DNA from: an uncultured Rubrobacteraceae bacterium
GTDB lineage: Bacteria; Actinomycetota; Rubrobacteria; Rubrobacterales; Rubrobacteraceae
NCBI GenBank assembly: GCA_902806065.1
Contig: CADCVE010000104.1
Span: 1-60,448 of the forward strand
Direction of reading: 5' to 3'
DNA: 60,448 nt
Below, in pieces: positions 2,277-54,776 of this stretch. Numbering within the stretch: position 1 is the stretch's first letter; each line of letters opens with the position of its first letter. The notes below the pieces were generated by a model. It was not told where the DNA came from. It worked only from the letters and a program-made list of their open reading frames with translations, and searched no databases. The position numbers were made by a program, and so were the translations under genes.

Positions 2277-2906
2277 ATGTCTAGAGAGAGTTGGGTCCGT
2301 CGTGGAGGACCGGCGGCGATGGTGGGCGGTGCGCTCTACTTCTGCGCCTTTGGCGCAGCCTACCTGATCTACAGCCTGTTCGCCGAGCAGGCGCAGGGGA
2401 CGTTCTTCGGGGAGCACGCCTTTATACATATCCTGGATGTGGCGATGTTCGCGCTGCTGCTGGTTGGGGCCGTCGGGGTCTACCTCCGCCAGTCGGACCG
2501 GATCGGGAAGGTGGGCAAGGCCGGATTCTACGCGGTTCTCGCCGGTTTCGGGCTCTCAGTGGTCGGTGGGCTGACTATCATCGTGGTCGGGCTTGCGGTG
2601 AGCGACGAGGCTACGCTCGGGGTGCTGGACGTGATCACGCATCCCCTCGCCCACGTCTTGTACGCGATAGGGTCGCTGGTCTTCGGGATCGCCACCTTCC
2701 GGGCAGGCATATTGCCTCGCGGTGGTGCGCTGCTCATGGCCGTCGGCCCGATCTGGCTCTTCGCGTCGTTCATGATCGGCCTCGGCGATACCGTGCTGCC
2801 TATATTGGTGCCCGTCGCCGTTACCGCGCTGGGTTGGATGTGGCTCGGCTACGCACTGCACTCCGAGAGGAAAGAAACCTCCGTGGAGCCCGAGCCCGCC
2901 GTCTAG
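2277..2906 (+). CDS. multi-pass membrane protein of unknown function
   Basis: About 209 residues with roughly six hydrophobic segments and a short charged tail (ERKETSVEPEPAV). I chose the ATG at 2277, which has GAAAGGAG just upstream, over a GTG at 2235 without one. The stretch DVITHPLAHVLYAIGSLVFG and the spacing of helices resemble small actinobacterial integral membrane proteins, but I do not recognise a family with a known role. It is followed by a second small membrane protein with a similar acidic, Pro-rich tail (TPEPAV) and then a sensor kinase; all three run in the same direction and may be cotranscribed. Confidence 0.75.
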   Translation: MSRESWVRRGGPAAMVGGALYFCAFGAAYLIYSLFAEQAQGTFFGEHAFIHILDVAMFALLLVGAVGVYLRQSDRIGKVGKAGFYAVLAGFGLSVVGGLTIIVVGLAVSDEATLGVLDVITHPLAHVLYAIGSLVFGIATFRAGILPRGGALLMAVGPIWLFASFMIGLGDTVLPILVPVAVTALGWMWLGYALHSERKETSVEPEPAV

Positions 2907-3000
2907 TAGCAGACGCGAAACTACCGGAGCGGCGTGAGGTCTGCGCCGCTCCGGATCACAGTCGAACGCCGTCCGAAACAGCAACTAGAAAGGAATCGTC

Positions 3001-3561
3001 ATGAACGACCGAACTTTAGGGACCATCGCCATGATCTGCGCCCCGGCGCTGCTGGTGGAGGGGATACTGGTGCAAGGTCGCGAGAACGCCGTCATCACCG
3101 GTATTGCGAGCATGATCTTCATGCTCGGTTGGATCTGCGCGAACATGGGAATGCGCCGCATGCACGCGGCCGGGACCGACAAATGGGGCTGGGCCGTGCT
3201 GCTCATCCAACTCGTCGGCCTCGTGCTGGCGTTCTCGTTTGGCTTCTTCGAAGCGACGGGCCTGCTCGGTTGGGACAGCATAATCTTCAACGTTACGGAC
3301 GCCGCCTGGCCACTGAGCATGTTGTGGATGCTGGTGGTCGGCGTCACCGTGATCGTGGCGAAGCGGCTCACCGGCTGGCGGCGTTTCGTCCCGGTCCTCT
3401 GCCCCCTCTGGCTCTTACTGGCATTGGGCGGCGGAGCAGTCCTTGGCGACGCGGGTGGCTACATCGGCCTCGCGTGGTCGGCGGTCACCTGGGCCCTGCT
3501 CGGCTACATCGTCCGCGAGAGCCGGGAGCAGGTCGGCGCGACGCCCGAACCCGCCGTCTAG
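3001..3561 (+). CDS. small multi-pass membrane protein of unknown function
   Basis: 186 residues with about six hydrophobic helices. The ATG is preceded by AACTAGAAAGGAATCGTC, which holds an AAAGGA ribosome site. The C-terminus (GATPEPAV) resembles the tail of the gene before it (EPEPAV), so the two may be diverged paralogues or membrane partners. It ends 71 bases before the sensor histidine kinase gene. The context allows a role as a membrane partner of that kinase, but nothing in the sequence shows this directly. Confidence 0.75.
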   Translation: MNDRTLGTIAMICAPALLVEGILVQGRENAVITGIASMIFMLGWICANMGMRRMHAAGTDKWGWAVLLIQLVGLVLAFSFGFFEATGLLGWDSIIFNVTDAAWPLSMLWMLVVGVTVIVAKRLTGWRRFVPVLCPLWLLLALGGGAVLGDAGGYIGLAWSAVTWALLGYIVRESREQVGATPEPAV

Positions 3562-3632
3562 TAAGCCGGGCGAGGAGGGGCGCGAGGGCCGCGCCTCTCC
3601 TCGCCTGCGGATAGAATGCGGGGAGACGAAAG

Positions 3633-5768
3633 ATGCGGATTGCAGTGAAAGATACCGTGAAAGGACGAGAGGCGGAGGCTCGGATCTCCGCTGGGCTCGC
3701 CGCCAGGCTTGCGTGGTCGCTGTGGGCGACCATCATGGCCGTTGGAGTGGCCTCGCTGATCCTGCGCTACCTGAACGGCTCCGCGTTGACTGCGGCGCTC
3801 GAAGGTGCGGAATATCTCGCAGAGATCCTGTGGTGGGACGTACTCGTCCCGGCCGCCATCCCGGCCTACGCGACGATCGGCGCCGTAGTTGCCTCGCGCC
3901 GCCCGGAGAACGCCATCGGCTGGCTGTGCCTGGCCCTGGCGGCGCTGGTCGCTGTTCAGGAAGCCGGCTGGGAGTACACCGCCCGCGCGTTCGAGGCGGT
4001 CCCCGGCTCGCTCCCCGCCGGGATGCCCGTAGCTTGGTTCTCCTATGTCCTGAACCCGCTCATGCTGGTTCCGTTCGTCCTGATACTGCTCCTTTTCCCC
4101 GACGGTCGGCCCCCCTCGCGCCGCTGGCGTCCCGTGGCGTGGGCGGTAGTGGCGGGGGCCGGCCTCGTAGCACTCTCCGCGGCCGTCGGTCCCGTCGTCA
4201 GCGCCGGCCTTCGAACCGAGCTCCCCAATCCCGTTGGGATCGAAGGTCTAGGAGGCGTCGTCGGCTTCGTGGAGACCGCGTGGTTCCCCGCCCTGGCGGT
4301 CTTGCTCCTCGCCTCTATCGCTTCAATCTTCTTTCGGTGGCGGCGGTCGGGCGGTGTCGAGCGGCTGCAGTTGAAGTGGCTTGCCTTCGTGGGGGCCGTC
4401 GTCGGGGCTGCCGTGCTCTGCGGGATAGCGAGCGCCGTGGTCTCCGGCTTCTCCTACCCGACCACGCTCCTTTTCGGCGTTGGCATCGCAGGCATCACCA
4501 CGGGTATTCCGCTCGCCATCGGTGTCGCCGTCCTCCGCTACCGCCTCTACGAGATAGACTTCGTCGTGAACCGGACGCTGGTCTACGGTTCTTTGACCGC
4601 CTGCGTCGTTAGTATCTACGTCCTCGTTGTAGGCTACCTGGGGGCGACGTTCCGGACGGAAGATAACCTCCCCATCTCGCTCGTGGCGACCGGTATCGTC
4701 GCCGTCCTCTTCGCGCCTCTGCGTGACCGTCTCCAGAGGTCCGTGAACCGTCTGATGTACGGCGAGCGCGACGAGCCTTACGCGGTGCTCTCGCGACTGG
4801 GACAACGCCTGGAGGCTACCCTTGCCCCGGAGGCCGCGCTGCCCGCGATAGTCGAGACCGTCGCCGGGGCGCTCAAGGCGCCGCACGTGGAGGTCCTGCT
4901 CCGCAGGAACGGCGGCTTCGAGACCGCCGCCCAACATGGGAAGCCCTCCGGCGGTGAGCCGCTAGTGTTGCCGCTCGCCTACCAGAACGAGACGGTTGGA
5001 CGCCTCGTGGTCTCTCCTCGCGCCGGAGATGAGCCCTTTGCCCCCGCCGATCGCCGGCTTTTAGAGGATCTCGCCCGCCAGGCCGGGGTCGCCCTCTACG
5101 CCGTCCAGCTTACCGACGACCTGCGACGCTCGCGCGAGAGGCTCGTCACGGCGCGGGAGGAGGAGCGGCGTCGCCTGCGTCGGGATCTCCACGACGGCGT
5201 CGGACCGCGGCTGGCGGCACTGACTCTCAAGATCGAGACCGCCCGCAACAAGCTCGCCCAAGACCCGGCCGCCGACGCCCTGCTCTCCGACCTCGCCGAA
5301 CGCGCCCGTGCCGCCATCACCGACGTGCGCGGGGCGGTCCACGACCTGCGCCCACCAGCGCTCGACGAGCTGGGCCTCGTACCCGCCCTGCGCGAGACTG
5401 CCGCTCAGTACGCAGGGACCGGTCTGAAGGTCTCGGTCGAGGCGCCAGCGGCCCTGCCGCCGCTACCCGCCGCCGTCGAGGTCGCCGCCTACCGGATAGC
5501 CCAGGAGGCTCTGACCAACGTCGTGCGCCACGCCGAGGCACGCTCCTGCGTCGTGCGCTTCGGCCTCGACCGGGAAGCCGGGTCGCTGCGCCTGGAGATC
5601 GAAGACGACGGCCGAGGGCTCGCCGCCGACCGCGGGACCGGTGTTGGCCTCTCCTCCATGCGAGAGCGGGCGGAGGAGTTGGGCGGGACCTGTGCCGTTG
5701 AGCCATCCCAGGCGGATGGGACTCGCGTGCATGCCGAGCTGCCGGGCGTGCTGGAGGTGGGCGAGTGA
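3633..5768 (+). CDS. membrane sensor histidine kinase, NarL/LuxR-partner (HisKA_3) type
   Basis: 711 residues. The N-terminal ~330 residues carry several transmembrane helices; a GAF-like region follows (about 385-510), then a HisKA_3 dimerisation domain with phospho-acceptor His520 in RRDLHDGVGPRLAALTLK, and a HATPase domain with ALTNVVRHAEA (N box) and EDDGRG, GVGLSSMRERAEELGG (G boxes). The order is that of kinases that phosphorylate LuxR-type regulators, and its stop overlaps the GTG of just such a regulator, so the pair is translationally coupled. The signal sensed is unknown. The N-terminal helices lack a recognisable periplasmic sensor domain, suggesting sensing in or at the membrane. 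Confidence 0.93.
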   Translation: MRIAVKDTVKGREAEARISAGLAARLAWSLWATIMAVGVASLILRYLNGSALTAALEGAEYLAEILWWDVLVPAAIPAYATIGAVVASRRPENAIGWLCLALAALVAVQEAGWEYTARAFEAVPGSLPAGMPVAWFSYVLNPLMLVPFVLILLLFPDGRPPSRRWRPVAWAVVAGAGLVALSAAVGPVVSAGLRTELPNPVGIEGLGGVVGFVETAWFPALAVLLLASIASIFFRWRRSGGVERLQLKWLAFVGAVVGAAVLCGIASAVVSGFSYPTTLLFGVGIAGITTGIPLAIGVAVLRYRLYEIDFVVNRTLVYGSLTACVVSIYVLVVGYLGATFRTEDNLPISLVATGIVAVLFAPLRDRLQRSVNRLMYGERDEPYAVLSRLGQRLEATLAPEAALPAIVETVAGALKAPHVEVLLRRNGGFETAAQHGKPSGGEPLVLPLAYQNETVGRLVVSPRAGDEPFAPADRRLLEDLARQAGVALYAVQLTDDLRRSRERLVTAREEERRRLRRDLHDGVGPRLAALTLKIETARNKLAQDPAADALLSDLAERARAAITDVRGAVHDLRPPALDELGLVPALRETAAQYAGTGLKVSVEAPAALPPLPAAVEVAAYRIAQEALTNVVRHAEARSCVVRFGLDREAGSLRLEIEDDGRGLAADRGTGVGLSSMRERAEELGGTCAVEPSQADGTRVHAELPGVLEVGE

Positions 5769-16994: not shown

Positions 16995-17582
16995 TTATAG
17001 GTTTGCGGTCATCGCGGGCATCAGGTCGCGGAAGGTGCGTCCGCTGGTGTTCTCGCCGATAGCGTGCATCTTCCACTCGCCCCCTTGCCGGTAGAGCTTC
17101 GCCATCACCTGGGCGTTGTGGTTCCCTCCGCCGGAGAGCTCGTAGCGGGCGACCTCAGTCCCCGTCCCCTCGTCTACTATGCGACAGAAGGCATTCTCGA
17201 TGCGGCTGAAGTCCTGTCCGGTAAAGGAGTTGACCACGAACATCAGCGCCTCCACGTTCTGCGGTACGCGGGTGAGGTCGACGATGATCTGCTCGTCGTC
17301 ACCTTCGCCCTCGCCCGTCAGGTTGTCTCCCGTATGAACTATCGAGCCGTCCTTACTGCGCAGTTGGCTATAGTAGATCGTATCCACCGGCTGCCCGGCT
17401 CCGTCGAACATCACGCACGAGGCATCGAGGTCGATCGACTCTCCTCCACCTCCCCCGAACATCTTCCGCAGGCCCCTCGGCTGCGCTACGTCCCACCCGA
17501 GACCCATCACGACGCGCGAGAGACTCCCGCCCGCCTCCTTTTCGAGCGAGATCCTCTGTCCCTTCACCAGATCTACCGGCAT
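16995..17582 (-). CDS. TerD domain protein (TerZ-like)
   Basis: 195 residues of the TerD family of calcium-binding all-beta proteins linked to resistance to tellurite, phage and other stress. Landmarks are SIDLDASCVMFD, then [20 protein letters not shown], whose Asp/Glu residues coordinate Ca2+ in known structures, and a late GEWKMHAIGE. It has a Gly-rich loop near residue 42 not seen in its neighbours. Its stop lies 15 bases before the ATG of the PRTase-TRSP gene, so they are likely cotranscribed. Confidence 0.92.
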   Translation of the reverse strand: MPVDLVKGQRISLEKEAGGSLSRVVMGLGWDVAQPRGLRKMFGGGGGESIDLDASCVMFDGAGQPVDTIYYSQLRSKDGSIVHTGDNLTGEGEGDDEQIIVDLTRVPQNVEALMFVVNSFTGQDFSRIENAFCRIVDEGTGTEVARYELSGGGNHNAQVMAKLYRQGGEWKMHAIGENTSGRTFRDLMPAMTANL

Positions 17583-17623
17583 TTTCGGTCCCTTTCCCTT
17601 GATCCCAGGCCACAGCTAAGTTG

Positions 17624-18823
17624 TTACTTGGAGCCCTTACCCCATCGGAACCCAAAGCCGAAGCGTTTGTCGGCTTCCCGGTGACCGCGAAAGTATTGCT
17701 CCTCTTTGGTGATCTCCACCGACTGTCCGGACGCCCGGACAGTGCAGATCGCGCAGAAGTTGAGGTTTCGATCCGGACTATCTAGCCGGATGGAGATTTC
17801 ATCTCCCGACCCGTCCGTGATCGTCAGCCGCCCCCCAACACTCGTAAAATCACTCGCCCCCCCATAAATAAACGCGAAGACCATAACCAGGTCTATCTCC
17901 GCCGCGCGATGCAGATACAGATTCTCTCCATCGCTCGCCGCCCCGCTCCGGTCGTCCTTATCTAGAAAGATGTACGGTGAGCGGTCTTTCGCTCCGAAAT
18001 TCCCACCTAGAGCCTGTATGACGCTCGCATCCCCGTTCTTCAAGCGGTACATGCACCCGAGGTCCAGGTCCGGCGCGCCACCACCGCCGCCGAGGCCGAA
18101 GATACCGCGCTTTCCGCCTCCCGCCGAAGCGTCCCAGTTGAGGTTGATGTGGATCGGGCGCGCCCCTCCGCCTTTCTTCAGGTCCACGACCTGCTTGTCG
18201 CCCTTTTTGTCCAACGTGATCTTGCTGATGTTCACCTTTGGAGCCGCGGGAGGAGGCGCCGCGGGAGCGGGCGGTGGGGGAGCCGGCGCGATGTCCTCTA
18301 TCTCCTGACCCCCGAAGTGCTGCAAGAGCGCACTCAGGCCACCGTTGAAGCCCTGGCCGACGGCGGCGAAGCGCCATACGTCCTTGCGGTAGATCTCCCC
18401 AACGATGACCGCCTTCTCCTGGCTGAAGTCACCTCCACTGAAGGGAAACCGCAATACCTCCGAACCCCCGCTCAGCAGCCGCAAGTGCCCCCGCGAGACT
18501 TGCGACATCGTCCCCGCGCCGTCCAGCGTTACGGTGAATACGAGCTTCTGTATCTTCGGCGGCATTCGCGAGAGGCGCACCTCAAAGACTTCCCGATCGC
18601 CGTTCCGGGGGCCGAGAGCCTCGATCTCTCCCTCCGGCGACCGCTTCTGGTTGTAGAAGACGAAGTACCTGTCGTCGGAGAGCTTGCCTTGCTCGTCCAC
18701 ACCGAAACAGCTTATGTCGAACTCCGGCGAACCCGGAGCCTGAACGTCGAGGCTAACCGTAAGGTCGATCGTGGCCGTCAGGTCCTGGAGCTTTGATTTT
18801 TGTCCGCGAGTGAACTCTCTCAT
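17624..18823 (-). CDS. long TerD-domain fusion protein (TerF/TerA-like)
   Basis: 399 residues from the ATG at 18823, preceded by GAAAGGGCGG. The first half is a TerD-related domain (LTVSLDVQAPG... FDISCFGVDEQGKL, ending [20 protein letters not shown]); a Pro/Ala linker follows (APAPPPPAPAAPPPAAPK, residues ~186-203); the second half starts ITLDKKGDKQVVDLKKGGG and has LNWDAS, DLDLGCMYRL and a TerA-like end. The first domain lacks a GDDE-type loop, so calcium binding there is doubtful. It sits between two shorter TerD genes in the same direction. Confidence 0.88.
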   Translation of the reverse strand: MREFTRGQKSKLQDLTATIDLTVSLDVQAPGSPEFDISCFGVDEQGKLSDDRYFVFYNQKRSPEGEIEALGPRNGDREVFEVRLSRMPPKIQKLVFTVTLDGAGTMSQVSRGHLRLLSGGSEVLRFPFSGGDFSQEKAVIVGEIYRKDVWRFAAVGQGFNGGLSALLQHFGGQEIEDIAPAPPPPAPAAPPPAAPKVNISKITLDKKGDKQVVDLKKGGGARPIHINLNWDASAGGGKRGIFGLGGGGGAPDLDLGCMYRLKNGDASVIQALGGNFGAKDRSPYIFLDKDDRSGAASDGENLYLHRAAEIDLVMVFAFIYGGASDFTSVGGRLTITDGSGDEISIRLDSPDRNLNFCAICTVRASGQSVEITKEEQYFRGHREADKRFGFGFRWGKGSK

Positions 18824-18847
18824 GGGCAATACCGCCCTTTCATTTTA

Positions 18848-19426
18848 TTACCCGACGCTGACGCCGAAGTGGCGGGCCATCGGGCCGAGCCCGCCGTTGA
18901 AGCCCTGGCCGACGGCCCGAAACTTCCACTCGCCCTTGTTGCGATAGACCTCGCCAAAGAGCATGGCGGTCTCCGTGGAGGCGTCTTCGGAGAGATCGTA
19001 GCGCACGATCTCGTTGTTCGACTCCCCATTGACCACCCGGATAAACGCCCCGGAGACCTGTCCGAAGCTCTGGCGGCGTGTCTCTCCCTCGTGGATCGTC
19101 ACGCTGAAGACGAGCTTATTGACGTCGGGCGGTACCCTCTCCAGGTCCACCTTTACCTGCTCGTCGTCGCCCTCGCCCTCACCCGTCAGATTATCCCCGG
19201 TGTGCTCCACCGACCCATCCGACGAGCGCAGGTTGTTGTAGAAGATAAAGTCCGAATCACTACGGACCTTATTCTGTTCGTTGACGATAAAGACCGAGGC
19301 GTCCAGGTCGTAGGCTGCGCCGTCGGTGGCGCGCACGTCCCAGCCCAGACCCACGAGCACCTTCTTGAGGTTAGGGTCCTCTTTGGATAAGGAGACGTTG
19401 CCGCCCTTGCTCAACGAGATCGCCAC
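18848..19426 (-). CDS. terD: TerD family protein
   Basis: 192 residues from the GTG at 19426, which has GGGGAGGT about 8 bases upstream; a start further out is not supported. Typical family order: [71 protein letters not shown] and [17 protein letters not shown]. The Asp-rich loops are intact, so calcium binding is expected. Close paralogue of the gene at 19533. A strong hairpin lies between the two genes. Confidence 0.94.
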
Positions 19427-19477
19427 GGTTCTTACCTCCCCATGCTTGTTACGGACGAGTCGCCACAAACAAACTTA

Positions 19478-19513
19478 CCCCGTCCGGCGCATCGTGCGGC
19501 GCGCCGGACGGGG
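19478..19513 (-). terminator. intrinsic terminator or attenuator between two terD genes
   Basis: A perfect 13-base inverted repeat (CCCCGTCCGGCGC and its complement) with a 10-base loop. On the minus strand it is followed by TAAGTTTGTTTGT, so it should stop or reduce leftward transcription after the first terD gene. This would give more of the promoter-proximal TerD protein than of the genes further left. Confidence 0.75.
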
Positions 19514-19532
19514 CATGTTACTGGTCTATAAG

Positions 19533-20108
19533 CTAGACGCTAACGCCGTAGTTGCGGGCCATTGGTCCCAGGCCCCCGGTGAAGCCCTGGCCAATAGCCT
19601 TGAACTTCCACTCGTTATCCTTGCGGTAGACCTCGCCGAAGAGCATCGCAGTCTCCGTGGAGGCGTCTTCGGAGAGGTCGTAGCGTGCGATCTCGCTGTT
19701 GTCCGACCCGTTTACCACCCGGATAAACGCGTTGCTGACCATGCCGAAGTTCTGGTTGCGGGTATCGGCGTCGTGAATCGTAACCCCAACAGAGAGCTTC
19801 GCCACGTCTTGAGGCACGCCGTCGAGGTTGACCTTTATCTGCTCGTCGTCACCCTCGCCCTCACCGGTGGTATTGTCGCCCAGGTGCTCCACCGAGCCGT
19901 CGCCACTCTTCTTGTTGTTGTAGAAGATGAAATCGCTGTCGGTGCGGACCTTCTCGTCCGTCTTGAGCATGAACATGCTAGCGTCGAGGTCGAAGGCCGA
20001 CCCGTCTGTAGACCGGGTGTCCCACCCCAGCCCGATCACTATGTCTTTCAGCCCCGGGGCTTCCTTGCTCAACGAGACGTTACCGCCTTTAGAGAGCGAT
20101 ACTGGCAT
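19533..20108 (-). CDS. terD: TerD family protein
   Basis: 191 residues from the ATG at 20108, with AAGGAGGTTAAGA upstream. It shares [50 protein letters not shown] and [20 protein letters not shown] with its downstream neighbour. All calcium-binding acidic positions appear present. It is probably the first TerD gene of the leftward run and has a hairpin plus T-rich stretch after its stop, so its own transcript may be more abundant than the rest. Confidence 0.94.
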
Positions 20109-20197
20109 TCTTAACCTCCTTGTGATCTTTCCACCCAACTAACTTCCAAGTATACAACATGCCCCCGAGACGGCCAGACTACCCGGTTAACTTTGCG

Positions 20198-20956
20198 TTA
20201 CAAGGGCTGAAGACGCCCATAATACGCCAGCGTCTCATACTCGATGCTAACCCGCCCATCCTCCTGATAGGTACCGAAAATCTCTTCCAGATCCTCCATC
20301 ATTGTGTTGTAACCCGGATGCCCCGCCTGCGGTACGTAGGAAGAGGACAACATCCGTCCCTTCAGACCGTCCAGATCAAAGGTCTGCTGATGCTCGAAGC
20401 TTTCGGCCTCGAAAGCACCGGGATCGAAGAACGAGCAAACCTCTCCTGGCAAGTCGAACGGCTTGTACTCCTCGGTCTTGTACTCTCGAATCAATCGCTC
20501 ATAAGCCTTCATAAACGGCGTCGCGCCTTCACGCATCTCGTTCCAGAGGAGCGCGACCCACCCCCCCGACCGCAAAACGCGTATGAATTCAGCTCTCGCC
20601 GCATCCGGGTCGAACCAGTGAAACGCCTGTCCAACCACTACGAAGTCCACGCTCTCCGCTTCGAGCATCGTCTCTTCTGCTGACCCCGCGACGCTCGTAA
20701 AGCGGTCGTAACGTTCTAGCCGGTGTTCGCCGGCCTCGCGCATCTCCGCGTTCGGCTCTACCCCGTAGACGCGGTTGCCGTTCTCCAGGAACAGCTCGGA
20801 CAGGAGCCCTGTCCCCGAGGCCACGTCCGCGACGACCGAGTCACTCGTCAACCCGCACTCGCTCCGCAATAGGACCAGGACGGCGCGCGGGTAGCCGGGC
20901 CGGTACCTCACGTAGTTTTTCACCTTGCCGGAGAAGCGTTCCTTCGGGTCCGTCAC
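20198..20956 (-). CDS. class I SAM-dependent methyltransferase
   Basis: 252 residues. The SAM-binding motif I is VVADVASGTGLLSELFLENG, then VYGVEPNAEMREAGEHRL and VDFVVVGQAFHWFDPDAARA, typical of the UbiE/COQ5-like Methyltransf_11 type. It begins with GTG and MTDPKERFSGKVKNYVRYRP, a common start for this small-molecule subgroup. It lies between the TerC-like and TerD genes on the same strand, with about 90 bases before terD. Substrate unknown; the location makes a link with the ter set possible but unproven. Confidence 0.88.
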   Translation of the reverse strand: MTDPKERFSGKVKNYVRYRPGYPRAVLVLLRSECGLTSDSVVADVASGTGLLSELFLENGNRVYGVEPNAEMREAGEHRLERYDRFTSVAGSAEETMLEAESVDFVVVGQAFHWFDPDAARAEFIRVLRSGGWVALLWNEMREGATPFMKAYERLIREYKTEEYKPFDLPGEVCSFFDPGAFEAESFEHQQTFDLDGLKGRMLSSSYVPQAGHPGYNTMMEDLEEIFGTYQEDGRVSIEYETLAYYGRLQPL

Positions 20957-21216
20957 TCTAACCCCGGCTCCTCAGATCGAGATGAGGTGGCACTCTCAGG
21001 CATCTCCTACCCTCTAGACCGACGTCTGTTATACAGAGCGTACCTATCCTACGCCGCACGCTCTCGATTTCTCCCCAGCCACGAATTTCGATTGGCAGGT
21101 AGACGGGGAGGTGTCTCCCGGTGGCCTCCGCGTAATATCCCTCCCACGAACCGAACAAGTGTCAGGACGATGCCAACTGACTATTAGACTTCCGCGTAAT
21201 AGAAAGCTGCAACTCC

Positions 21217-21915
21217 CTAGGCGGCCTTGGATCCCCTGCGGGCGACCAACAGGGCTATCGCCGTAAAGATCGCGGCGGCGGCGAGGGCGATGATTCGGTG
21301 GTACCCCTCCGTCGCCTCCGAGACGGTCTGCACTATCCCCAGCCGGTCGTCGAACATCAACTCGACGGCTACGTAGACCAGAAGCGCCGCGCCAGCATAT
21401 ACGATGATCGGGAAGCGGTTCATCAGGTTGCTCAGGATGGTGGCACCGTAGACGATGATCGGTATCGTCAGCGCAATCCCTAAAGCTACGAGCCACACCC
21501 GCGGTTCACCTGACGAGTCCCTCGAAATAGCGACCAGCGCGATAACGTTGTCGAGCGACATGACCGCGTCGGCGACGGCGATGATCCGGATGGACTGCCA
21601 CAGCCCCGACCCAGCCTTGACGTTCGCTTCTTCATCCTCTTGCCGGACGAGTTGCCAGGAGATGTAGATGAGCAGCAGCCCCCCGATGAGCTGGAGTAAC
21701 GGCAATGTCACGAGGAAAGCGACGATGAAGACGAAGATGACCCGCAACCCAATAGCCGCCGCCACGCCGAGCTGGATGGCTCGCCGGCGCGTGTTGCCTT
21801 CCAGGCGGCGCACCGCCAACGCGATCACAACGGCGTTGTCTCCGGAGAGGATGAGGTCTATGAGCAGAACCCCAATGAACGCGCCCAACACTTCCAGGGT
21901 GAAAAAGTCCCCCAC
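21217..21915 (-). CDS. TerC family integral membrane protein (YjbE type)
   Basis: 232 residues with about seven helices. The two family signatures, LILSGDNAVVIAL near the start and VMSLDNVIALVAI in the middle, each place an Asp-Asn in a helix, as expected for TerC proteins, which are implicated in metal (often manganese) export and in tellurite response. It is the first gene of the leftward ter run. Its position beside TerD genes supports a role in metal homeostasis linked to them, but it could also act alone. Confidence 0.92.
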   Translation of the reverse strand: MGDFFTLEVLGAFIGVLLIDLILSGDNAVVIALAVRRLEGNTRRRAIQLGVAAAIGLRVIFVFIVAFLVTLPLLQLIGGLLLIYISWQLVRQEDEEANVKAGSGLWQSIRIIAVADAVMSLDNVIALVAISRDSSGEPRVWLVALGIALTIPIIVYGATILSNLMNRFPIIVYAGAALLVYVAVELMFDDRLGIVQTVSEATEGYHRIIALAAAAIFTAIALLVARRGSKAA

Positions 21916-52023: not shown

Positions 52024-53033
52024 GTCAGGGAGACCGTCGCCAGAACCTGTTGGGAACCATGGATCGTCTCGGCCTAGGGGCGGTTCTGCTGGGTCTTCCG
52101 GCGAACTTCGCCTGGTACACTGGTGGCGCGGATAACCGGGTGGACCCCTCCGTACCTCTCGGGGTCGCCGCCGTCCTCGTTACCCCCGACGCCGAATACG
52201 TCGTAACGGACAATATCGAGGCCGGGCGGATGCGCGAAGAGCAGACCACTGGCTTTGAGGTAGTAGAGCACCCCTGGTACGAAAAAGCGTCGTCACTCTA
52301 CCGGGAACTGGCCGGTGGCGCTACGTTGGGGACTGACTTTCCCCTGGAGGGCGCCCGGGACGTTTCGGAGGAGGTCGCCCCGCTACGCTACGTGCTGGAC
52401 GCGGAGGCTATCGAACTCTACCGGAGAGCTGGCGCCGAGACCGCGGCGGCGATAGGGGAGGCGGCCGCGTCCGTCTCGGTTGGCATGACCGAGTACGAGG
52501 CCGGCGCGGACCTTGTAGCCGCTTGCCGGGAGCGGGGGCTCACTACCTCTGTGACACTGGTGGCAGCGGACGACCGCATTGCCCGTTACCGGCACCCGAT
52601 CCCTCAAGGAGACACCATACAACGCCGGGTAATGCTCGTGGTCTGCGCCGAGCGTGGTGGGCTCTACGTCAGCCTGACACGGATCGTGGACTTCGAGGAA
52701 CCGGAACCGGAACTCGCACGTCGGCAGGAGGCGAGCGAGGAGGTCCTGCGTCGCTTTCGGGAGGAGGCCACCCGTCCCGGCCGCACCCTCGCCGACGCCT
52801 TCAAGGACTGCAAGAGCTTCTACGCCGAGGCCGGCTTCCCCGATGAATGGCGGCTGCACCACCAGGGTGGGATGGCCGGTTACGCCGCCCGCGAGATCAT
52901 AGCAACTCCTGAGACTCGTCAAGAGATACAGGTCGGGCAAGCATTCGCCTGGAACCCTTCCATAACCGGCGCGAAGGCAGAGGAGACCTTTATCCTCACC
53001 GGGGATGGGCCGGAAGTGATCACCGTCCCGTGA
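52020..53033 (+). CDS. M24 (pita-bread) family protein lacking two metal ligands
   Basis: 337 residues: a creatinase-like N-terminal domain (ANFAWYTGGADNRVDPSVPL) and a C-terminal pita-bread domain. Peptidase M24 enzymes need Asp, Asp, His, Glu and Glu to bind two metal ions. Here the first two Asp positions read LVVCAERGGLYVSLTRIVDF, with Cys and Ser in place of Asp, while a His (HHQGGMAGY) and a Glu (GAKAEETFIL) remain. It is therefore probably not an aminopeptidase. Its stop overlaps a galE start. ATG at 52020; the upstream frame is not used. Confidence 0.85.
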   Translation: MSQGDRRQNLLGTMDRLGLGAVLLGLPANFAWYTGGADNRVDPSVPLGVAAVLVTPDAEYVVTDNIEAGRMREEQTTGFEVVEHPWYEKASSLYRELAGGATLGTDFPLEGARDVSEEVAPLRYVLDAEAIELYRRAGAETAAAIGEAAASVSVGMTEYEAGADLVAACRERGLTTSVTLVAADDRIARYRHPIPQGDTIQRRVMLVVCAERGGLYVSLTRIVDFEEPEPELARRQEASEEVLRRFREEATRPGRTLADAFKDCKSFYAEAGFPDEWRLHHQGGMAGYAAREIIATPETRQEIQVGQAFAWNPSITGAKAEETFILTGDGPEVITVP

Positions 53034-53143
53034 AGCTCCTGGTTACAGGCGGCGCGGGTTACATTGGCAGTGTCGTTGCTCTGCAATTGATCGAGGCGAG
53101 TCTACATTTCTTACTTCAAGCGTGGGGCGTGGCGGATGGGTAG
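53030..53143 (+). pseudogene. galE: truncated galE (UDP-glucose 4-epimerase) start fragment
   Basis: From a GTG that overlaps the stop of the M24 gene, the first ~23 residues are MKLLVTGGAGYIGSVVALQL and then IEA, the Rossmann start of GalE-type epimerases. After that the frame leaves the family (SLHFLLQAWGVADG) and stops at 53143, inside the end of the oppositely oriented EVE-NERD gene. So the rest of galE is lost, and a joint lies near 53098-53102. The coupled start shows that the M24 gene was once followed by an intact galE. Confidence 0.8.
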
Positions 53144-54321
53144 CAGCCAGTGGCGTTGGTCAGGTCGTTGACGGCGGTCTTGACGGTGGGGAGGTCGTGT
53201 CGATTATTCGAGCTTAGGATTTCATGGACCAGCCAGGTCAGCGGGAGGACGCGGACGCCACGGCAGGAGATGCGGCCCTCTACGAAGGCGTTGGAGAACA
53301 GCAAGATAGGCGCGACTTCGGCTGCCAGGATCTCCCGCAGCCGGTAAGTTCCTCGCCAGGTTTGCTTGATGAAGTCTTTGCCGGTCGAACGCCCGTTGAT
53401 AGAGAGCTCGCCCTTCGCGGACGTCACCCGCCCCTTGTGGCTCTTCGTCTCGATGCAGAAGAATCCCGTCTCGCCGAGCACGACGTGATCCACGTTGCCA
53501 AGCCCCGGCAGCGGGAGGTCATGGAAGACGTAGTAGCCGTGCGCCCGCAGCTTCCCCAACTCGGCCCCAACAGCCTCTTCAGCCCTGCCGCCCGAGATCC
53601 AGGTCCTCTCCGCCGCCCGGACCTTCTCTTGGGCATGGCGCTCGACTCTCTTGAGCCCGAATAACGACGCACCCATCTCGGCCACCGTCCATAACGCCGT
53701 CCGCTTGCGTCCCTCGGCCAGGGCGTGCTGCCCCGCATCCCGCTTCTCATACTTCCTCTCACGCTCCCCTGAAAAGCGGGCGAGATCCAGAACCGGAGGT
53801 TCGGAGACCGGAAGTTCGGAGACCGGAAGTTCGGAGACCGGAGGTTCGGAGACCGGAGGTTCGGAGACCGGAGGTTCTGGGGTTAGATCTTCCGCGATTT
53901 CAGTGGCGGGCGTGGTCGCGGCGACTCTCTTGAGCACGTCCTCGAATCCGCTGTCGGGGATCGCCAGGAACCCACCAGTCAGAGCGTAGCGATGGAACCC
54001 CAAGACGGGATGGGGACCATCTTTTGGAAACGTGTACGGAATGCTTTCGGGGAACGCCCGCATGCGGGTAACCGGTATGGCCCACAATGGCGGGTTCTTC
54101 GATGACCAGTCCGTTGCTTCGCCGGGGGCAGCGGCCGCTTCGGATACCTCTGCCGCGCCCACGAAACCCTCCCCAGCCATGTAAAAGAGCGCCTGGTCGC
54201 CGGGGAGCGCCTTTCGCGCCGGGGTCCGGTTCGACGAGACATGGAACGTGCACCCGCGACGTACTGACTCGAAGTTGTCCCGAGCGTGGTCCCCGACGAA
54301 CGACATCACCCAGTTGCTCAC
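53116..54321 (-). CDS. EVE-like domain fused to a NERD nuclease-like domain
   Basis: 401 residues from the GTG at 54321, with TTAGGAGGCTGG upstream. Residues ~1-140 resemble an EVE/PUA-like domain (SNWVMSFVGDHARDNFESVR, GDQALFYMAGEGFVGAAEVS, FHRYALTGGFLAIPD), a fold that reads modified bases in DNA or RNA. A repeated linker follows (about 155-190), then a charged helical region and a NERD domain (about 250-345) with GNVDHVVLGETGFFCIETKS, the D-x(n)-ExK core of PD-(D/E)xK nucleases. Such a fusion suits modified-nucleic-acid restriction. It sits beside a truncated galE, which suggests arrival by insertion. Confidence 0.75.
   Translation of the reverse strand: MSNWVMSFVGDHARDNFESVRRGCTFHVSSNRTPARKALPGDQALFYMAGEGFVGAAEVSEAAAAPGEATDWSSKNPPLWAIPVTRMRAFPESIPYTFPKDGPHPVLGFHRYALTGGFLAIPDSGFEDVLKRVAATTPATEIAEDLTPEPPVSEPPVSEPPVSELPVSELPVSEPPVLDLARFSGERERKYEKRDAGQHALAEGRKRTALWTVAEMGASLFGLKRVERHAQEKVRAAERTWISGGRAEEAVGAELGKLRAHGYYVFHDLPLPGLGNVDHVVLGETGFFCIETKSHKGRVTSAKGELSINGRSTGKDFIKQTWRGTYRLREILAAEVAPILLFSNAFVEGRISCRGVRVLPLTWLVHEILSSNNRHDLPTVKTAVNDLTNATGCYPSATPHA
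53792..53881. repeat. six tandem 15-base units inside the EVE-NERD gene
   Basis: The unit ACCGGAGGTTCGGAG, with a g/a change in two copies, is repeated six times without gaps; the last copy ends TCTGGG. On the minus strand each unit encodes PVSEP or PVSEL, giving a flexible linker between the two domains. Copy number may vary between strains by slippage. Confidence 0.9.
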
Positions 54322-54324
54322 CAA

Positions 54325-54776
54325 CCCAGCCTCCTAAAGAGCTACCGAATCCATTATAGGCCGTAGAGGCGGGGCGGGGATATGCCAAGGTAGCCTTCGG
54401 TGAAGGCGTGTTCAAAACAAAAAGGACGCGGGGTGAGGAAGACCACTACCGAATGCACGGACTTTGCATCACGGTGGCTTCGTCTTGACGTACTCTATCG
54501 AACGCCGCGTCGCCATCGTCCTTGTTTGCGTGAACGAAGCTGATACCCATGCAGACTCCACTCTTTGCAACTTCGAGGCGAACGGTGACTATAAGCCTGC
54601 ATTCTGTATGTTTGACGCCTCTGCTGGTGTAGAGGTCGTGAGCCGAGACGGGTTGCAACAAAACGGCTATTTGCAGGCGAAAGAACGACCGCGAGATCTC
54701 ACGGAACCGTGTTTAGAGACGCCTGGTTTCGGTGACATACACAGTGTAAGGCACCACTATAGATGGAGGTTCGATC
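54325..54776. other. 452-base stretch without a firm gene
   Basis: This stretch lies between the EVE-NERD gene and the PfpI-like gene. A plus frame at 54464-54937 runs over the PfpI start, and a minus frame at 54446-54661 has no start signal; neither shows a family match. GC content is lower than in the flanking genes. If the EVE-NERD gene came in with an insertion, the right joint could be here. Confidence 0.4.

What the first reader, a model, noticed from the sequence alone, without database searches (positions are those of the whole stretch)
53116..54321. EVE-like reader fused to a NERD nuclease domain
Seen: a GDQALFYMAG-type PUA/EVE-like N-terminus, a PVSEP/PVSEL repeat linker and a NERD domain with VDHVVLGETGFFCIETKS. 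Known: EVE domains bind modified bases and are found in type IV-like restriction; NERD is a PD-(D/E)xK relative. Inferred: a single-protein restriction factor that cuts modified phage nucleic acid. I cannot say from memory how common this pairing is.
Basis: partly seen in the sequence, partly recalled or inferred. Interest (0 to 1): 0.7.

Follow-up and report, generated by a model that had tools for sequence, protein, structure and literature searches.

The report
EVE–NERD fusion, putative modified-DNA nuclease
A Rubrobacter gene encodes one protein that joins a domain resembling known readers of chemically modified DNA bases to a DNA-cutting-type nuclease domain; it probably lets the cell destroy phage DNA carrying modified bases, and is a new family within an already predicted kind of enzyme.

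Summary
Window 53119-54321 (minus strand, 401 codons, GTG start with an AGGAGG eight bases upstream) encodes an N-terminal EVE/PUA-fold domain, a disordered Pro/Ser linker (PVSE(P/L)-type repeats, in this copy only) and a NERD-type PD-(D/E)xK nuclease with all catalytic residues. The NERD match is strong. The EVE match is sub-threshold for this protein, but six of eight relatives match EVE (best 5.4e-6), profile-profile comparison with other actinobacterial EVEs gives 1.1e-5, and the predicted fold's best solved match is the EVE-HNH restriction enzyme VcaM4I, then YTH m6A readers. Five other complete copies exist, all in one family (Rubrobacteraceae), under purifying selection. In relatives it is a one-gene insertion at a single housekeeping site, empty in many genomes and decayed in several; in the window's genome it sits elsewhere, amid remains of galE-galK. 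It is not in a defence island and PADLOC does not know it. Most likely it is a solitary modification-dependent (type IV) restriction endonuclease, built like VcaM4I with NERD in place of HNH. EVE-PD(D/E)xK fusions were already predicted as a class; EVE-NERD was not named in the papers available. No activity is shown; the modification is unknown.

The parts
53119..54321 (-). EVE-NERD fusion gene, 401 codons, GTG start
   Evidence: Open frame; five other full-length homologues at 54-62% identity; dN/dS well below 1 over both domains
54330..54335 (-). Shine-Dalgarno AGGAGG, 8 nt before the GTG start
   Evidence: Sequence read directly
53917..54321 (-). EVE/PUA-like domain, residues 1-135; invariant W4, N16, D42 (of the PGD motif), Y47, G52-F53, W72, H110, G117-F118
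   Evidence: PF01878 in 6 of 8 relatives, best 5.4e-6; hhalign to actinobacterial EVEs E 1.1e-5 over 119 columns; AF2 pLDDT about 70-92 in this domain; Foldseek top hits VcaM4I and YTH domains; invariant residues
53752..53916 (-). Disordered Pro/Ser-rich linker, residues 136-190
   Evidence: pLDDT about 30-40; dN 0.7-1.8, poorly conserved in sequence and length
53792..53877 (-). 15-nt tandem repeat encoding PVSE(P/L)-type units inside the linker
   Evidence: TRF, 5.7 copies, 97% matches; absent from relatives
53119..53751 (-). Helical lead-in plus NERD nuclease, residues 191-401
   Evidence: AF2 pLDDT 92.1, pTM 0.85; Foldseek hits among PD-(D/E)xK proteins: SfsA-DNA, NucS/EndoMS, Hjc, Can2
53305..53592 (-). 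NERD Pfam core, residues 244-339, with E248, D278, E291-x-K293, Q320
   Evidence: PF08378 E 2.1e-15; residues invariant in 11 aligned NERDs including three distant membrane-type paralogues
53030..53098 (+). galE stub: first 23 codons of UDP-glucose 4-epimerase, then homology ends; left edge of the replaced segment
   Evidence: 81-91% protein identity to intact galE in relatives at the same place after the M24 peptidase gene
54450..54519 (+). galK remnant (HGGFVLTYSIERRVAI against NGGFVLPCAIERRVAA); right edge of the replaced segment
   Evidence: BLASTN to DNA downstream of galE in L062, L063, L065; translations

Best explanation
A solitary, single-chain modification-dependent (type IV) restriction endonuclease. 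The N-terminal EVE domain scans DNA, flips out a modified base (cytosine- or adenine-derived) and holds it in an aromatic pocket; a flexible linker and long helices connect it to a NERD PD-(D/E)xK domain that cuts nearby with a divalent metal, so incoming phage DNA carrying the modification is destroyed while unmodified host DNA is spared. Shown here: both domains, conserved catalytic residues, purifying selection, patchy one-gene insertion and decay. Inferred: DNA as the substrate, base flipping, identity of the modification, cleavage and phage defence.
For: Closest solved fold of the N-domain is VcaM4I (6yex, Foldseek E 2.3e-4), followed by m6A-reading YTH domains; VcaM4I is laid out as EVE 1-147, helical linker 148-178, nuclease 179-309, and flips 5mC/5hmC into a pocket of P24, W82 and Y130 (PMC7897488), closely parallel to this protein. 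NERD is strong and catalytically complete. EVE-PD(D/E)XK fusions have been predicted to be type IV enzymes (PMC7641849). Empty and filled states of one site across the family, faster divergence than the neighbouring ketoacyl synthase gene (68% against 91% identity between the same two genomes), and decay in G003, G005, G019, G026 and G029 fit an accessory defence gene. The window's genome has no PF00145 C5-cytosine methyltransferase.
Against: No assay. Not in a defence island; PADLOC does not match the protein. Mostly one fixed site in relatives, which is less mobile than typical restriction genes. EVE is below the Pfam cut-off for this protein. Two genomes with intact copies (G002, G025) encode C5-cytosine methyltransferases, so generic 5mC cannot be the trigger unless their sequence contexts differ. 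NERD domains have little biochemical precedent as stand-alone restriction nucleases (own knowledge).
Confidence: 0.58

Rival explanations
1. An RNA-acting or abortive-infection nuclease: the EVE/YTH-like domain recognises modified RNA (for example tRNA or m6A-type marks) and the PD-(D/E)xK domain cuts nucleic acid to stop growth on infection.
For: PUA, EVE and YTH domains also bind modified RNA (PMC7641849); most Foldseek hits after the first are m6A-RNA readers; NERD in Type-2 BREX PglW is proposed to act in suicidal responses (PMC12839542).
Against: The top fold hit is a DNA modification-dependent restriction enzyme; the NERD model's hits are mostly DNA nucleases (SfsA-DNA, NucS-DNA, Hjc); no antitoxin-like partner beside it in the window.
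Confidence: 0.17
2. A house-cleaning or DNA repair endonuclease acting on the cell's own damaged or aberrantly modified bases.
For: NERD model resembles SfsA and the mismatch nuclease NucS/EndoMS; the gene is kept at one housekeeping site near serS in several genomes; Rubrobacter is known for radiation tolerance (own knowledge).
Against: Absent from most family members, with empty sites, repeatedly decayed, fast-evolving relative to its neighbour; a repair gene would be expected to be kept more widely.
Confidence: 0.13
3. The nuclease has no cutting role, or the gene is a selfish or decaying ORF without defence function.
For: Decay in five genomes; lies in the wreck of galE-galK in the window's genome.
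Against: Catalytic residues invariant across copies 54-62% identical to the window protein, dN well below dS in both domains, good ribosome-binding site in the window copy.
Confidence: 0.12

Closest known systems
VcaM4I and other EVE-HNH modification-dependent restriction endonucleases
   Same: N-terminal EVE of about 140 residues, helical linker, C-terminal nuclease in one chain; best solved fold match of the N-domain
   Different: Nuclease is NERD PD-(D/E)xK, not HNH; longer disordered linker; modification specificity unknown; N-domain sequence barely recognisable as EVE
Predicted EVE-PD(D/E)XK type IV enzymes (Bell, Wolf and Koonin 2020)
   Same: Same general architecture class: EVE plus PD-(D/E)xK nuclease in one protein
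   Different: NERD is not named anywhere in the main text of that paper; whether their supplementary lists hold this family could not be checked
NERD-domain proteins (PF08378), including NERD of BREX PglW, methylation-associated defence kinase MAD6, and membrane-type NERDs of Rubrobacteraceae
   Same: Same nuclease-related core with D...ExK...Q
   Different: No kinase or membrane segments; fused instead to an EVE reader
YTH-domain proteins and YTH-McrB
   Same: Same PUA-superfamily fold, high Foldseek probability
   Different: No YTH family match in Pfam and no AAA+ partner beside it; not a McrBC system

Membership tests
NERD nuclease-related domain (PF08378) | Sequence match above the curated cut-off | tested here: met
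   57.6 bits against 22.1
NERD nuclease-related domain (PF08378) | PD-(D/E)xK fold and catalytic D...ExK...Q | tested here: met
   Invariant residues; model pLDDT 92 with PD-(D/E)xK proteins among Foldseek hits, though TM-scores are modest
EVE domain (PF01878) | Match above the curated cut-off | tested here: inconclusive
   Window protein 18-21 bits against 23; 6 of 8 relatives match at E up to 1, best E 5.4e-6
EVE domain (PF01878) | EVE/PUA fold and profile-level homology | tested here: met
   hhalign E 1.1e-5 over the whole domain; Foldseek VcaM4I, YTH and EVE structures 2gbs, 1zce
EVE domain (PF01878) | Aromatic pocket for the flipped base | tested here: inconclusive
   W72 aligns with the conserved Trp of other EVEs, and Y/F112 with H110 may play the Y130/Q128 roles; no residue-level structural alignment could be made
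Modification-dependent (type IV) restriction endonuclease | Cleaves modified but not unmodified DNA | not testable with these tools
   Needs biochemistry
Modification-dependent (type IV) restriction endonuclease | Stand-alone, no cognate methyltransferase beside it | tested here: met
   Neighbours are a M24 peptidase, DJ-1/PfpI, alcohol dehydrogenase; no C5-methyltransferase (PF00145) in the genome
Known anti-phage system in PADLOC | Match to a PADLOC model | tested here: not met
   0 families at E 1 or below

The most novel reading that the evidence does not exclude
EVE-NERD is an undescribed family of single-protein modification-dependent nucleases in which NERD, otherwise an orphan or 'backup' nuclease domain, is the primary effector, and whose reader senses a mark other than ordinary 5mC (perhaps an adenine or hypermodified base of Rubrobacter phages).
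Probability: 0.3. Interest if true: 0.55.

Novelty: new variant of a known kind. Interest (0 to 1): 0.42.

Why it matters
NERD domains are widespread and appear in several defence systems, but their trigger and target are generally inferred. A compact two-domain protein with a base-reader directly fused to NERD gives a directly testable system: feed it DNA with defined modifications and ask whether and where NERD cuts. If active, it adds a nuclease type to the toolbox of modified-base-dependent enzymes, from a lineage known for heat and radiation tolerance (own knowledge).

Tried and rejected
Direct sequence search of PDB with the window protein found nothing; the profile of full-length relatives hit zinc-binding ZnuA proteins weakly, judged a chance match in the helical region. 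NCBIfam PglW/MAD6 and a PHROG hit reflect the NERD domain only. Plasmid and phage searches returned only NERD-region matches; no viral contig carries the N-domain. The idea of a defence island was tested and rejected: window genes gave no coherent defence system. Thirty other EVE loci of the phylum contained no NERD neighbour or fusion. A functional role for the PVSEP repeat was rejected because no relative has it. The idea that an intact copy remains at the usual site in the window's genome was rejected: a metallo-beta-lactamase-fold gene sits there. Mobile-element signs at the window's insertion were looked for; no inverted repeats were found. Presence of C5-methyltransferases does not anticorrelate cleanly with intact copies. 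The supplements of Bell et al. 2020 and the paper of Lutz et al. 2019 could not be read.

Full report
Observation. The minus-strand ORF at 53119-54321 (stop to 53116) encodes 401 residues and begins with GTG, eight bases after AGGAGG. Pfam gives NERD at residues 244-339 with 57.6 bits (cut-off 22.1) and a weak EVE match at residues 31-94 with 18.3 bits (cut-off 23). PADLOC gives nothing.

The genome. Relatives place the window in Rubrobacter (contig C104 of a 3.75 Mb, 112-contig assembly). It has one NERD match.

Relatives. Full-length fused relatives exist in G009, G008, G002 (R. marinus), G013 and G025, at 54-62% identity; G006 has both halves at contig ends in the same gene context, so probably also an intact copy. 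The N-domain family was found in 10 of 396 genomes drawn from the phylum, all of one family, and in no viral contig.

N-terminal domain. Scanned alone, the window's N-domain scores 21.0 bits against EVE, and 6 of 8 relatives match with a best E-value of 5.4e-6. Profile-profile alignment with ten EVE domains found elsewhere in the phylum covers 119 columns with E 1.1e-5, probability 82%. The AlphaFold2 model of this part is confident (block-mean pLDDT 71-92), unlike the rest of that first model. Its best solved matches are VcaM4I, an EVE-HNH restriction endonuclease (E 2.3e-4), and then a long series of YTH domains, with EVE structures 2gbs and 1zce also listed. In VcaM4I the EVE flips 5mC/5hmC into a pocket of P24, W82 and Y130 with Q128 as the wedge (PMC7897488). 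In the new family W72 is invariant and aligns with the conserved Trp of other EVEs; H110-x-Y/F112 is a plausible wedge and pocket pair. That last assignment is my inference.

C-terminal domain. A model built from 11 NERD sequences is of high confidence (pLDDT 92.1, pTM 0.85). E57, D87, E100, K102 and Q129 of that alignment (residues 248, 278, 291, 293 and 320 in the protein) are invariant even in three distant paralogues with membrane-like segments. Foldseek's top hits include SfsA with DNA, NucS/EndoMS with DNA, Holliday junction resolvases and Can2, all PD-(D/E)xK proteins, with modest TM-scores.

Linker. Residues 136-190 are predicted disordered, evolve fast (dN 0.7-1.8) and vary in length. 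The PVSEP repeat is a 15-nt tandem array in this copy only. dN/dS is about 0.2-0.4 in both domains (dS is near saturation for many pairs, so ratios are approximate).

Genome context in relatives. In every relative with the gene and sufficient flanks it lies between a divergent ketoacyl synthase gene and downstream a small membrane-protein gene, oxygenase or nitroreductase, FabH-like, ICMT and serS genes (in G002 one more gene lies between). In at least ten family members the two flanking genes are direct neighbours: the site is empty. In G003, G005 and G029 the gene is broken by frameshifts or decay, in G026 only a NERD part with an early stop is left, and in G019 the EVE part has been joined to the last residues of the protein (GCYPSAVPD) with NERD deleted. 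The gene therefore behaves as a one-gene accessory insertion that is gained or lost. It diverges faster than the neighbouring ketoacyl synthase (68% against 91% between G009 and G002).

Genome context in the window. Here the usual site holds a metallo-beta-lactamase-fold gene, and the EVE-NERD gene lies elsewhere. In G007, G008 and G009 the M24 peptidase gene is followed by intact galE and then galK. In the window galE stops after 23 codons at 53098, the EVE-NERD gene follows on the opposite strand, and a galK remnant starts at about 54450. So a segment carrying the single gene replaced most of galE and part of galK. No recognisable transposase and no inverted repeat marks the junctions. Neighbours are metabolic.

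Mechanism. The most economical reading is a VcaM4I-like enzyme with a NERD nuclease: modified-base recognition by EVE licenses cutting by NERD. Domain identity, catalytic residues, selection and accessory behaviour are shown; binding, flipping, cleavage, DNA rather than RNA, and phage defence are inferred. The window's genome lacks a C5-cytosine methyltransferase, but two carriers with intact copies have them, so plain 5mC is not an obvious trigger.

Comparison with the known. Bell, Wolf and Koonin (PMC7641849) described EVE-PD(D/E)XK fusions as putative type IV enzymes; NERD is not mentioned in their main text. Text searches for an EVE-NERD pairing in 5.39 million open papers found none. NERD is known from PglW in Type-2 BREX and from DndF, where it is thought to be a backup or suicidal nuclease (PMC12839542). 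I therefore file the protein as a new variant of a known kind.

Limits. The genomes searched are one per species and many are drafts; broken copies could in part be assembly errors. The sample of other EVE loci searched for NERD was 30. No supplement could be read.

Noticed in passing
window 53030-53098 and 54450-54519: Remains of galE and galK flank the EVE-NERD gene; relatives have intact galE-galK after the same peptidase gene.
   Followed up: yes
L058 (G000:C103) 2193-2945: A metallo-beta-lactamase-fold gene (PF12706, weak Apyc1-like match below cut-off) occupies the site where relatives carry EVE-NERD; the site between the ketoacyl synthase and the small membrane protein may be a small integration hot spot.
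   Followed up: partly
L031 8577-9038 (G019): EVE part alone, with the C-terminal tail GCYPSAVPD of the fused protein: NERD lost by internal deletion, leaving a stand-alone reader.
   Followed up: partly
L033, L034, L035: Rubrobacteraceae also carry distant NERD paralogues with membrane-like segments on both sides of the nuclease core.
   Followed up: no
window 16998-21915: Several proteins read by eye as TerD-like ([13 protein letters not shown]) plus a TerC-like membrane protein: a possible Ter stress cluster about 31 kb from the finding; not tested with profiles.
   Followed up: no
L137 (G021) about 2720-3926: About 1.2 kb of other sequence lies between the ketoacyl synthase and the small membrane protein where EVE-NERD sits in relatives; not identified.
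   Followed up: no
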